A stretch of 56,547 bases of DNA. Source: Prevotella sp. (lineage in GTDB: Bacteria > Bacteroidota > Bacteroidia > Bacteroidales > Bacteroidaceae). Under the pieces are notes generated by a model. It saw only the letters and a list, made by a program, of their open reading frames with translations. It searched no databases and was not told where the DNA came from. Of this stretch, positions 1,267-56,547 are shown piece by piece (position 1 is the stretch's first letter; each line of letters begins with the position of its first letter). The position numbers and the translations under genes are program-made. The DNA lies in NCBI GenBank assembly GCA_017545045.1, contig JAFYDA010000036.1, positions 1 to 56,547 of the forward strand, read 5' to 3'.

Positions 1267-2832
1267 CTATGTTGTTTCTTGTAATATCGGCAAAGTAACG
1301 GTGAAGGTTGTTCCTTTCCCCAACTCGCTCTCACACCTGATGTCGCCCTCATGCAGGTTGATGATTTTCTTGACGTAAGCCAGTCCCAGGCCGAATCCCT
1401 TCACGTCGTGAACATTTCCTGTATGCACGCGATAGAACTTGTCGAAAATCTTCTTCACGTTCTCTTTCTTGATGCCAAGTCCGGTATCGCGAATCGAGAA
1501 GCACAGATGGTTTTTCTCGTTCCAGGTACGGATATACAGGTCTAACGGCTCGTCAGGCTTACGGTATTTCACGGCATTGTCCATCAGGTTGGTGATGGCA
1601 TTCTGGAAGTGCACCTCATCCACATAGATAGCCGAATCGACGGCCTCTATCTCAGTGTAAATCTTACCGCCGGTATGCTCCACGCGCAGGGAGAATGTCG
1701 AGGCAATCTGTTCCAACAGTTCATTCAGGTCCAATTCCTTTTTCTTGAAAGAGGCCGTCTTGCGGTCGAACATCGACATCTGGAGCACTTTCTCGACAAG
1801 GAATCTCAAGCGCTTCGACTCATCGTTGATGACACCGCCCAAATGCTTCATCATCTGCGGGCTCTTGCCCACGGTATCGTCGCTCAGCATCTGTGCTGCC
1901 AGCGAGATACTCGAGATGGGGGTCTTCAACTCATGCGTCATGTTGTTGATAAAGTCGTTCTTGATCTCTGTATAGCGCTTCTGACGGAAGATAATGACAA
2001 TCGTGAAAATAAACGTTATGAGCAGCACAACCGTGAACACGACGGCCGGAATCATAAAGCGGATGCTCGACATGATATACTTGTTCATGTCAGGGAAATG
2101 GATTTTCACGACACCCATCTTTGACGACGGGTCATTGCGGAACAGCACCTGCGAATAGCTGTACTCCAGCCCTTTTTCCGAATAGTCAGGACAGCGGTAC
2201 ACTTCGCGACCGTCGGCCGTCGACACCGTGAAGTGATAAGGGATGTTGATGCCGTTATTCAGAAGTTCGGTATTAATGTCGTGATCCAGGAGTTTGAAGT
2301 TGACACGTTCCCGCAACGGCTTCTCACTGGCCGTATAAAGTATATTGTACACAACCTCGTCGAGCAGGGCTTTCTGATAGATATAACGGTTGCGGGCTAT
2401 CTGCTGCAACGACTTCGAGGCTTCGTCTATCGCGCTCTTGTCTGAGCGTAATATCATGGCCTTGGGAATCGTAGACGGTTTGGTCGTAATGGTCTTCAAC
2501 TCGAACGAAGAATATACCGTGCCGTCCTTGCCGGCCACCGAATACTGATGGGTATGCTGAATGACATCGTTCAACTGACCGGAACGGGCCATGATGGAGT
2601 CCTGCCTGAAAGCGCGGCGCTCCGTCTCATTGATGTCTTTCTCCAAATAGCGCAGCGTCTCGTTCAGTTCCAGATTTCGCGAGGCTTGATACAGGCTGCG
2701 GTTCACCGACTCGTCAAACTGCTCTTTCTTCATCCTCGCCATCTGCTCAATATATGACAGCTGAAGGTAAAGCAGGCCCAGAAACGAGAACCCCATCACG
2801 ACGGCTATGATCCAAATTGTACTTTTCTTCAT
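1267..2832 (-). CDS. rprX: sensor histidine kinase RprX
   Basis: The 521-residue protein has two membrane segments (about 7-25 and 258-282) flanking a periplasmic domain of about 230 residues. A cytoplasmic HisKA domain carries the phospho-acceptor His300 in FINNMTHELKTPISS, followed by an ATPase domain with the N box (NLMDNAVKYR), G1 (DTGLGIKKEN) and G2 (GFGLGLAYVKK). This is the RprX sensor of Bacteroidetes, paired with RprY encoded immediately downstream. I place the start at MKKSTIWIIAVV (2832) because a signal-anchor starts there and a -7 box ends only 4 nt before the ATG. The frame is open for 5 more codons upstream, which would overlap that promoter. Confidence 0.93.
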   Translation of the reverse strand: MKKSTIWIIAVVMGFSFLGLLYLQLSYIEQMARMKKEQFDESVNRSLYQASRNLELNETLRYLEKDINETERRAFRQDSIMARSGQLNDVIQHTHQYSVAGKDGTVYSSFELKTITTKPSTIPKAMILRSDKSAIDEASKSLQQIARNRYIYQKALLDEVVYNILYTASEKPLRERVNFKLLDHDINTELLNNGINIPYHFTVSTADGREVYRCPDYSEKGLEYSYSQVLFRNDPSSKMGVVKIHFPDMNKYIMSSIRFMIPAVVFTVVLLITFIFTIVIIFRQKRYTEIKNDFINNMTHELKTPISSISLAAQMLSDDTVGKSPQMMKHLGGVINDESKRLRFLVEKVLQMSMFDRKTASFKKKELDLNELLEQIASTFSLRVEHTGGKIYTEIEAVDSAIYVDEVHFQNAITNLMDNAVKYRKPDEPLDLYIRTWNEKNHLCFSIRDTGLGIKKENVKKIFDKFYRVHTGNVHDVKGFGLGLAYVKKIINLHEGDIRCESELGKGTTFTVTLPILQETT

Positions 2833-2836
2833 GCTG

Positions 2837-2844
2837 CAAAGATA
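2837..2844 (-). promoter_or_regulatory. -7 box directly in front of rprX
   Basis: The minus strand reads TATCTTTG followed by CAGC and then the ATG of rprX. This is a perfect TAnnTTTG box. No clear TTTG is seen 19-21 nt upstream. If it is used, the mRNA leader is essentially absent. Confidence 0.55.
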
Positions 2845-2983
2845 CACGAATTATTAAATGTGACCATATTTTAAGTTAATTATTTGCCGATACTTTGTGA
2901 TAATTAACGTTTTTAATAATTTTAATTACGTATTTATAATCACACAACGCTTGCATGAAGAAAAAGAACGTCACGTTGTTTTT

Positions 2984-3173
2984 CTGTGATGGCTCCCCGT
3001 AATCCTGCGGAGGCGCTACAGAATTCTGTGGAGGCTCCCTGTGAATCTGTGGAGGCTCCCTGTGATTCTGTGGAGGCTCCCTGTGATTCTGCGGAGGCGC
3101 TACAGAAAAGTCCCACGGCCTGGGACAAATTTCCCACGGCCTGGGACAAACACGCGGAGGCTCCACAGAAATT
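2984..3173. repeat. 21-bp-phased array of palindromic units (array 1)
   Basis: Nine units begin at 2984, 3005, 3026, 3047, 3068, 3089, 3111, 3132 and 3153, that is at 21-bp steps with a single 22-bp step. Seven are of type A (CTGYGGAGGCTCC..., or the variant CTGCGGAGGCGCTACAG) and two are of type B (TCCCACGGCCTGGGACAAA). Both types are built around palindromic cores (GGAGGCTCC; TCCCA...TGGGA). There are no unique spacers. The array sits in the 479-nt gap between the divergent genes rprX and rpmE. The rest of that gap is AT-rich DNA plus the rpmE promoter. Confidence 0.95.
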
Positions 3174-3231
3174 GCATGCAAAGGCAGAGCGACACCCGCA
3201 TAGTCACATTAAACGAAAAAAAAGCTAAAAG

Positions 3232-3263
3232 TTTGGTGGAATCAGAAAAAAGTAGTACCTTTG
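3232..3263 (+). promoter_or_regulatory. promoter of rpmE
   Basis: TTTG at 3232-3235 and TACCTTTG at 3256-3263 are separated by 20 bp, an exact match to the Bacteroidetes primary sigma factor consensus. The start codon of rpmE is 48 nt downstream. Confidence 0.85.
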
Positions 3264-3311
3264 CACCCGAAAACTGAAAAAGTATTATAATAACATTACA
3301 AAACATTTAAA

Positions 3312-3566
3312 ATGAAACAAGGTATTCATCCCGAAAACTATCGCCCCGTCGTGTTCCGTGACATGTCCAACGGCGATATGTTCCTTACGAAGTCTACAGC
3401 AAAGACCAACGACACAGTGGAATTCGAAGGCGAAACTTACCCAGTGGTAAAAGTTGAAATTTCAAGCACCTCTCACCCGTTCTATACTGGTAAGAGCAAG
3501 CTCGTTGACACGGCTGGTCGTGTTGATAAGTTCATGAGCCGCTACGGTAAGGCTGCGAAGAAATAA
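3312..3566 (+). CDS. rpmE: 50S ribosomal protein L31, type B
   Basis: The 84-residue protein begins [20 protein letters not shown] and ends [11 protein letters not shown]. The N-terminal KxGIHPxYRxV and the [11 protein letters not shown] block identify L31. The zinc-binding cysteines of the zinc-ribbon form are absent, so this is the zinc-independent type B paralogue (RpmE2). It is a large-subunit protein at the subunit bridge. It has its own consensus promoter and a terminator 30 nt after the stop, so it is monocistronic. Confidence 0.96.
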
Positions 3567-13707: not shown

Positions 13708-13857
13708 AAAAAGGGACTATGCCAAAAGAAAAGAAAGATGCGCCAACCCCCAGTCCGAAGCGGCACGGACTGTCAGTCCGTAGCGGTGCGGACTAACAGT
13801 CCGAAGCCTTCGGATTTTTACGAACAGCCTCCATTTTTTTATTTGACACAGCCACAC
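13708..13857. mobile_element. MITE-like element with imperfect terminal inverted repeats
   Basis: The left end GGGACTATGCCAAAAG (13709 on) and the reverse complement of the right end, GGCTGTGTCAAAT (13843-13856), match at most positions (GGnCTnTGnCAAA). Between them lie three palindromic units. There is no open reading frame of note. The pattern resembles a non-autonomous element of about 150 bp, but the ends are imperfect and no target duplication was confirmed. Confidence 0.35.
13752..13816. repeat. 23-bp tandem palindromic units (array 4)
   Basis: Units start at 13752, 13775 and 13798. The first two are AGTCCG-N8-CGGACT plus a 3-nt spacer, and the third is a shortened form (AGTCCGAAGCCTTCGGAT). 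Each unit is an inverted repeat, like the 21-bp arrays, but the sequence and the period differ. Confidence 0.85.
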
Positions 13858-29104: not shown

Positions 29105-29167
29105 TTAAGAGTCTCGAACCCCTGTCAAATTCCTGCCGAACAAATGTAAGTGAAATCAGCCAAAATT

Positions 29168-29293
29168 CTGCGGAGGCGCTACAGATTTCTGCGGAGCCTC
29201 CGCAGTTTTCTGGGGAGCCTCCGCAGTTTTCTGGGGAGCCTCCGCAGAATCACAGGGAGGCTCCGCAGAATTATAGGGAGGCGCTACAGAAAA
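29168..29293. repeat. 21-bp-phased array of palindromic units (array 2)
   Basis: Six units begin at 29168, 29189, 29210, 29231, 29252 and 29273, in exact 21-bp steps. All are type A. The second unit, CTGCGGAGCCTCCGCAG, is a perfect 17-nt palindrome around its central base. The first and last carry the GGAGGCGCTACAG variant seen in array 1. The array fills most of the 255-nt gap between hsdR and the kinase-like gene and stops 12 bp before that gene's promoter. Confidence 0.95.
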
Positions 29294-55063: not shown

Positions 55064-55198
55064 AAATATTCTCGATTTGGTTGCAAAATTACAAAATAAA
55101 TATGAAATGAGCACTTTATTTCCATATTTTTTTACAACACACGAAAGGGGCTGTGTCTAAAGAGAAAGAGGCTGTGCCAGAAGAAAAAGGGCATTTTT

Positions 55199-55303
55199 CT
55201 GGGGAGGCTCCACAGATTTGTCCCACGGCCTGGGACAAAATTCCCAAGGCCTGGGACAAAAATCCCAAGCCTTGGGAATTTTCTGGGGAGGCTCTACAAA
55301 TTA
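55199..55303. repeat. 21-bp-phased array of palindromic units (array 3)
   Basis: Five units begin at 55199, 55221, 55242, 55263 and 55283 (steps of 22, 21, 21 and 20). The first and last are type A (CTGGGGAGGCTCYACA) and the middle three are type B (TCCCAMGGCCTGGGACAAA, and TCCCAAGCCTTGGGAA, a near-perfect palindrome). The same two unit types occur in arrays 1 and 2. About 50 bp to the left (55148-55185) GGCTGTGyC-AGAAA is also repeated at 22 bp. The block lies upstream of the NrdJ-tail-like gene. Confidence 0.93.
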
Positions 55304-55319
55304 AATGGGCAGCGGACTA

Positions 55320-56042
55320 AAATCGAGTAGGAGGTGAACACTAATCAGAGGTGTTCACATCTTTTCGTGTTCACTTGTCCTCTCACACCACCGTACAAGC
55401 GGTTCCGCATACGGCGGTTCCTCAACCTTTCGCCAGCGCGGATGCGCTGTAGTAACAACCTATCCAGCTATAGCCTGCCCTGCGGAGTGGCTCATCCCCG
55501 ATTGCTCGGGCGAGTATCCAACTGTCGGCTATGCGCCAATAACCCTTCCTCGTATTGCCCCATTGCTAGGCGTGCCATCTGTCTATACCGCATCGGATGA
55601 GGTTCTTAACCCTTGTTCGTGGTTTCTTCCACGACTTCCAAATGCACATTCTCAGACGACGGCGAAGCCATTTGTCTATCTCTACGACCTTATTGATCAT
55701 ATCGCCATACTTGAAATATTCCGACCAGCCTCCCAGGTAGTTCCGCAGGGCTGTCTTGCGCTGCTCATAACCCATGCCGTTACTTCGCGAAGTAATCTGC
55801 TTGAGTTTGCGGCGCAACTTGGCCTCGCTTCTCTCATGTAGTCGCATACGGAACTTCCCGTTGCTCACATAGAAGCCGTAGCCAAGGAATTTCAACTTGC
55901 CAATATAGGCGCATTCGGTCTAAGGCCGTCATCAGCATAGCGAACAAAGGGGTGTCCTCTCCGTTCCAGTTCCTTGTCGAGTTCATTCAGTAGGATGTTG
56001 GCAAGCAGGGGGCTCAGCGGACCTCCTTGCGGAGTCCCTTCA
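55320..56042 (-). mobile_element. group II intron remnant (3' part)
   Basis: On the minus strand the element ends with a domain V hairpin (55387-55418), ACCGCCGTATGCG-GAAC-CGCTTGTACGGTGGT, with a GNRA-like loop. A domain VI-like region follows, with GTGAACAC/GTGTTCAC arms, and the usual end CCTACTCGAT (about 55321-55330). The 5' ribozyme domains and the start of the reverse transcriptase are missing. The left end abuts a long palindrome at 56046. Confidence 0.85.
55566..56042 (-). pseudogene. group II intron reverse transcriptase/maturase, broken
   Basis: Two pieces remain. The first has [20 protein letters not shown] and the catalytic YADD (55928-55939). The second (to 55566) has the maturase domain: [36 protein letters not shown] and IRGW-like YLGGWSEYFKY. 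They are in different frames, and the expected sequence between them is missing, so an internal deletion has occurred. The N-terminal half of the protein is absent too. The gene cannot be functional. Confidence 0.85.
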
Positions 56043-56462: not shown

Positions 56463-56470
56463 CCTGAAAA

Positions 56471-56547
56471 GGCGGCGGCCTCCTACTCTCCCGCATTGCA
56501 TTGCAGTACCATCGGCGCAGGCGGGCTTAACTTCTCTGTTCGGAATG
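56471..56547 (-). rRNA. rrf: 5S ribosomal RNA, 3' part, cut by the window edge
   Basis: The minus strand reads CATTCCGAACAGAGAAGTTA, then AAGCCCGCC...GCCGATGGTACTGC, and ends GGAGAGTAGG...GCCGCC. This is the 3' two thirds of 5S rRNA. The 5' part and presumably 23S and 16S lie beyond the right edge. The exact 3' end is uncertain by a few bases. Confidence 0.93.

What the first reader, a model, noticed from the sequence alone, without database searches (positions are those of the whole stretch)
2984..3173. Strictly 21-bp-phased array of two unrelated palindromic units
Nine units keep a 21-bp register although two different sequences are mixed: CTGYGGAGGCTCC... and TCCCACGGCCTGGGACAAA. Ordinary tandem duplication would not give one register for two unrelated unit sequences. 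A 21-bp step is two helical turns, so the palindromes face the same side of the DNA, as expected for cooperative protein binding; it is also seven codons, so all frames stay open. The array sits between divergent rprX and rpmE. I do not know a described element of this kind.
Basis: partly seen in the sequence, partly recalled or inferred. Interest (0 to 1): 0.78.

Follow-up and report, generated by a model that had tools for sequence, protein, structure and literature searches.

The report
Genome-wide 21-bp-phased palindrome arrays
Between genes of this Prevotella-like bacterium lie many short arrays in which different DNA palindromes sit on one 21-base grid; related species keep the grid with other palindromes, an unusual and apparently undescribed kind of bacterial mosaic repeat.

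Summary
The window array is nine 21-bp units (2982-3170; AAAAAABBA, first one degenerate). The same units recur across the genome, with two more arrays in the window. Using exact cores only, 118 of 118 site pairs within 150 bp in 453 kb lie at multiples of 21 bp, 35 of 35 between the two unit types; block shuffles give none.

The grid recurs in related species with other mixtures: A without B, B without A, A+B, or B with a third palindrome. Between two sister species (about 90% identity), 7 of 8 matched B arrays persist, one differing by exactly one unit; the eighth site holds A and other units instead.

Arrays are non-coding and mostly near gene 3' ends. No match was found in the viral, phage and plasmid collections, and no shared ends. 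They resemble REP/BIME mosaic repeats but lack the GTAG/CGTC tag and a consistent RAYT transposase, so they fail those membership tests.

Best reading: accessory BIME-like mosaic elements constrained by DNA geometry. Protein binding is inferred, not shown; neutral copying is a serious rival. 'All frames open' is wrong: three of six are closed.

The parts
2982..3170 (.). whole array, nine 21-bp units in one register
   Evidence: phased listing; TRF rows 2982-3107 and 3111-3150
2982..3002 (.). degenerate A-type unit
3003..3107 (.). five A-type units, three of them (3024-3086) a direct repeat whose arms are not complementary
3108..3149 (.). two B-type units (TCCCA-CGGCC-TGGGA)
3150..3170 (.). A-type unit with the ACACGCGG arm, an arm class found at 16 of 42 junctions between a B unit and a non-B arm
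29166..29291 (.). second array in the window, six A-type units (outer two by eye)
   Evidence: TRF, sequence, four inner units called
55197..55301 (.). third array in the window, order ABBBA
   Evidence: TRF, phased listing
1270..2832 (-). histidine kinase next to RprY, left neighbour
3312..3566 (+). type B 50S ribosomal protein L31, right neighbour

Best explanation
A family of non-coding, accessory, interspersed mosaic repeats that works like the BIMEs of enterobacteria but is built on a 21-bp grid. Shown by sequence: several palindromic unit types share the grid within and between species; arrays are present or absent at matched intergenic sites; one site differs by a whole 21-bp unit; unit type can differ at a matched site. 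Inferred: the feature kept by selection is DNA geometry (GC-rich palindromic core with AT borders once per two helical turns), read by a protein that bends, wraps or bridges DNA near gene 3' ends; units change number by replication slippage or unequal exchange, and new arrays arise by copying from elsewhere through an unidentified agent.
For: Register: 118 of 118 and 268 of 271 pairs at multiples of 21, mixed pairs included. With gaps of 0-30 allowed, every listed B pair (from G000, G398, G401) has period 21 or 42 and every listed A pair (from G000, G321) period 21; lists are cut short, matches exist in 6 of 8 and 5 of 8 genomes, reversed-pattern control 0. Another mixture: in G059, C half-words (AAATTTGG / CCAAATTT) lie in exact register with the B unit in 15 of 20 cases, at least one at 8 of 9 loci. 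G321 has A pairs but no B pairs, G106 the reverse. Sister species G398/G399: B arrays at 7 matched loci, one whole-unit difference; an eighth site holds other unit types; one A array at a matched site with different arm words and the same period, by eye. Constraint: B arms 0 of 200 changed against 11.4% in intergenic DNA and 20.4% at third codon positions; in the 5 units not used to find the G399 locus, 1 of 50, P = 0.017. Placement: array edge to gene 3' end median 40 bp (n = 44), to 5' start about 147 bp (n = 42). Absent from the relative at the 4 sites with both flanks aligned, one of which also differs by about 1 kb beside the array.
Against: No binding protein is identified. The grid is not absolute: in G059 5 of 20 C half-words are off by one or two bases, because some C units are 22 bp, and TTTCC/GGAAA units in G399 are 22 bp apart (read by hand). 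The one-peak-per-21-bp GC profile does not reproduce the 10.75-bp GC period of the E. coli gyrase motif (PMC6379681, passages), so gyrase is only an analogy. The 0-of-200 figure is biased, since loci were found by these arms; the less biased figure rests on 50 bases. Sameness of arms could be concerted evolution rather than selection. Within A units arms are less complementary than shuffled arms (4.49 against 5.22 of 8), against selection for a hairpin in each unit.
Confidence: 0.47

Rival explanations
1. Neutral or selfish minisatellite-like repeats: ancestral 21-bp modules spread and diverged, and exact copying alone keeps the period.
For: Recurrent composite order A-BB-A, often with the a3 arm beside B (16 of 42 junctions), suggests copying of a module; arrays are accessory and turn over; 22-bp units exist in G059.
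Against: Different units share the register in several species; non-core positions of aligned sister arrays show 14 substitutions and 0 gaps in 146 positions while intergenic DNA has 72 gap positions in 2157 (with the same selection bias); off-register pairs are 3 of 271, from one array.
Confidence: 0.32
2. Transcript 3'-end elements: arrays are transcribed and fold, ending or protecting mRNAs.
For: Placement near 3' ends; strong folding on both strands, mean z -8.0 for 17 A arrays and -6.9 for 26 AB arrays. In the window a terminator-like B hairpin with TTTT lies on the minus strand at 3126-3110.
Against: Inverted-repeat DNA folds well whatever its role. The longest T run just after the array is 1-2 at 71 of 96 ends. 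A terminator pattern lies inside the array for 2 of 32 genes, but that scan finds one for only 4 of 109 genes without arrays, so it is weak. At L155 hairpins with a T run flank the array and G067 has them without it (by eye). The window array lies between divergent genes.
Confidence: 0.18
3. REP/BIME elements proper, spread by a RAYT (Y1) transposase.
For: Mosaic palindromic units, high copy, extragenic, close to 3' ends, as described for REPs (PMC3733652, PMC2817692, passages).
Against: No Y1_Tnp match in G000, G106, G398 or G400, all array-bearing (G000 is only 59% complete); matches do occur in array-bearing G059, G321, G399, G401 and in array-poor genomes such as G004, G016, G051. GTAG occurs 79 times and CGTC 8 times over 454 unit-strands.
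Confidence: 0.05
4. The repeat encodes a seven-residue peptide repeat.
For: 21 bp is seven codons; three frames are open in the window array.
Against: Only 7 of 43 arrays are open in all six frames, and neither of two long frames across the window array has a Pfam hit up to E = 1.
Confidence: 0.01

Closest known systems
BIME (bacterial interspersed mosaic elements, clusters of REPs)
   Same: Mosaic of more than one palindromic unit type, many copies, extragenic, near 3' ends, patchy between species (PMC2817692, PMC3733652, PMC6379681, passages).
   Different: A 21-bp register rather than linkers of varying length; unit sequences differ between species; no general GTAG/CGTC tag; no consistent RAYT.
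BrickBuilt minisatellite/MITE of Porphyromonas gingivalis (PMC4596501, passages incl. part of the abstract)
   Same: Bacteroidota; intergenic; tandem short units without spacers; unit number varies between strains.
   Different: One 23-nt unit with leader, tail and small inverted-repeat ends; here 21 bp, mixed palindromes, and no shared flanks found.
PINSR, 188-bp repeat of Prevotella intermedia/nigrescens (PMC4755523, passages)
   Same: Prevotella-lineage-specific high-copy intergenic repeat without terminal inverted repeats.
   Different: A 188-bp consensus, not described there as an array of 21-bp palindromes.

Membership tests
REP/BIME | short palindromic units in high copy, extragenic | tested here: met
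   75 exact B sites and 252 strand-matches of an A pattern in the genome; 43 arrays placed between called genes, two overlapping a gene end (by 42 and 2 bp) (the gene caller dropped ORFs lying over 20% in arrays, so this is partly built in)
REP/BIME | terminal GTAG or CGTC tag | tested here: not met
   79 and 8 occurrences over 454 unit-strands; GTAG comes mainly from one arm variant
REP/BIME | cognate RAYT (Y1_Tnp) in the genome | tested here: not met
   no Y1_Tnp in array-bearing G000, G106, G398, G400; present in G059, G321, G399, G401, where kinship to RAYTs was not examined
REP/BIME | binding of gyrase, IHF or DNA polymerase I | not testable with these tools
   needs an experiment
BrickBuilt | 23-nt direct repeat | tested here: not met
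   period 21
BrickBuilt | leader and tail with inverted-repeat ends | tested here: not met
   90 flanks compared: 9 pairs match, most with the L31-side flank of the window array and not at a fixed distance from the array end; one pair (L149/L151) matches over 105 bp
Transposon/MITE | target-site duplication | tested here: inconclusive
   direct repeats of 8 bp or more near both ends in 4 of 45 arrays against a mean of 0.65 at random positions; may be unit remnants
CRISPR | repeats separated by unique spacers | tested here: not met
   units are contiguous 21-mers; 34 B-B gaps are 6 bp, of 13 kinds

The most novel reading that the evidence does not exclude
A two-turn DNA grid is itself the conserved trait: lineages swap the palindromic unit sequence while selection holds the 21-bp step, so an unknown architectural protein or topoisomerase reads geometry and symmetry rather than sequence at dozens of intergenic sites per genome (48 clusters seen in 35% of this one).
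Probability: 0.18. Interest if true: 0.85.

Novelty: new variant of a known kind. Interest (0 to 1): 0.62.

Why it matters
As described in the passages I read, REP/BIME repeats keep the unit and let linkers vary. Here the step is kept and the unit varies, within arrays, between sites and between species. That separates what is copied from what is constrained and makes a DNA-geometry hypothesis testable with a simple bait experiment. The arrays could also serve as typing markers for rumen Prevotella.

Tried and rejected
Coding repeat (stops, no Pfam hit). Hairpin-per-unit selection for A units. RAYT-driven REPs. Phage or plasmid origin: no match. Rfam: no family reached its threshold at the window arrays. 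Canonical terminators: scan too insensitive to decide. A search for phased palindromes of any sequence found no period-21 array in 60-80 kb samples of G016, G384 and G157 and one AT-rich hit in 100 kb of G067; it found none in 80 kb of G059 either, where such arrays exist elsewhere, and only 13 in the 453 kb of own sequence, so its sensitivity is limited. Searching G399 with flanks of two more G398 arrays (L221, L222) gave array hits only and no matched site. Literature: searches in the held open-access library listed no paper that by title or abstract start describes a 21-bp phased palindrome array in Prevotella; most subscription papers are not held.

Rows left out: of 48 clusters, 3 with two units and 2 without a called neighbour on one side were left out of placement, leaving 43; folding and frame counts used the 43 with at least four units. 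Of 12 G398 loci, 8 were matched to a G399 site.

Full report
WHAT IS THERE. The window array is nine contiguous 21-mers from 2982 to 3170. Written as 8-bp arm, 5-bp centre, 8-bp arm, the A consensus is about TTCTGYGG-AGSCT-CCRCAGAA and the B consensus TTGTCCCA-nGGCC-TGGGACAA. Over 227 own units (162 A, 65 B) both types have nearly AT-only ends and a GC-rich core centred on G-S-C. Two further arrays lie in the window at 29166-29291 (A only) and 55197-55301 (ABBBA).

GENOME SCALE. The own assembly (2.36 Mb, 59% complete) holds 75 exact B sites (0 with the reversed pattern) and 252 strand-matches of the A pattern (control 2). In 825,657 bp 48 clusters were found; neighbouring spacings were 21 (155), 42 (9), 22 (2) and 9, 20, 43, 51 (1 each). 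With exact cores only, 268 of 271 pairs within 150 bp are multiples of 21 and the other three come from one array. The commonest orders were AAAA (7), ABBA (7) and AAAAAA (4). The contigs were chosen because they carry hits, so this is not a density estimate.

OTHER SPECIES. Within the genus, exact B sites occur in 12 of 200 genomes and exact A sites in 20 of 398, the own genome counted in both; many are one or two sites and may be unrelated. Strong carriers are G059, G106, G321 and, reached by a named scan, G398-G400. The scan of genome contigs for a B-B pair at 21 bp gave 36 stretches from five assemblies, named Prevotella, Prevotellaceae or, once, Bacteroidales. That pattern fixed the spacing; free-gap searches did not, and gave 21 or 42 for every listed pair, the lists covering G000, G398, G401 for B and G000, G321 for A. 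G059 joins B to a third palindrome: 15 of 20 half-words in exact register, 5 off by one or two bases. In G400 a fourth palindrome adjoins B in register, but several of those loci are near-copies of one longer repeat. Relatives close by rprX (G067, G384, G157) showed no clear array in the samples taken.

TURNOVER. G398 and G399 are sister species at about 90% identity over matched loci, range 84-94%. Seven matched loci keep B arrays; L213 and L196 differ by exactly one unit. These loci were found by their B pairs, so conservation is overstated. At an eighth site, L205, the G399 counterpart has no B units but A units followed by TTTCC/GGAAA palindromes. At L248/L260 both species have A arrays with different arm words and the same period (by eye). 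Four own arrays with both flanks aligned to a relative are absent there. B arms did not change in 200 bases, or once in 50 in units that did not serve to find the locus.

PLACEMENT. Of 43 arrays with both neighbours called, 30 are tandem, 7 convergent, 6 divergent; of 171 gaps of at least 100 bp, 102, 19 and 50. Array edges lie near 3' ends (21 of 44 within 31 bp) and rarely near starts (3 of 42). The array at L155 sits between hairpins with a T run that G067 has without the array (by eye).

WHAT IT IS. The pattern matches REP/BIME biology in placement, copy number and mosaic make-up (passages), but the tag and transposase tests fail, and no defined ends were found. I therefore say it works like a BIME and do not call it one. 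That the step reflects a protein reading DNA geometry is inference; neutral copying is a serious rival.

Noticed in passing
window 55322-55419 (-) and 56470-56547 (-): A group II intron match (RF00029, 42.7 bits) lies 20 bp from the third array, and a partial 5S rRNA at the window end.
   Followed up: no
window 13751-13807: A 23-bp tandem repeat, CAGTCCGAAGCGGCACGGACTAA, 2.5 copies.
   Followed up: no
window 55143-55189: Another 21-bp repeat (GAAAGAGGCTGTGCCAAAAGA, 2.2 copies) just before the third array.
   Followed up: no
L213/L241, L205/L233, L211/L239, L201/L243: At 4 of 9 matched array loci, alignment between G398 and G399 breaks at or beside an array, with 126 bp to 4.4 kb differing where measured.
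   Followed up: partly
L130-L133 (G321): A arrays are flanked by repeats of the TTGCACTACTTGCACC kind, inverted on the other side (by eye).
   Followed up: no
window 1270-3566: rpmE is beside rprX here but was not found beside it in 30 relatives' loci (29 best rprX matches and G059); the array sits at that junction.
   Followed up: partly
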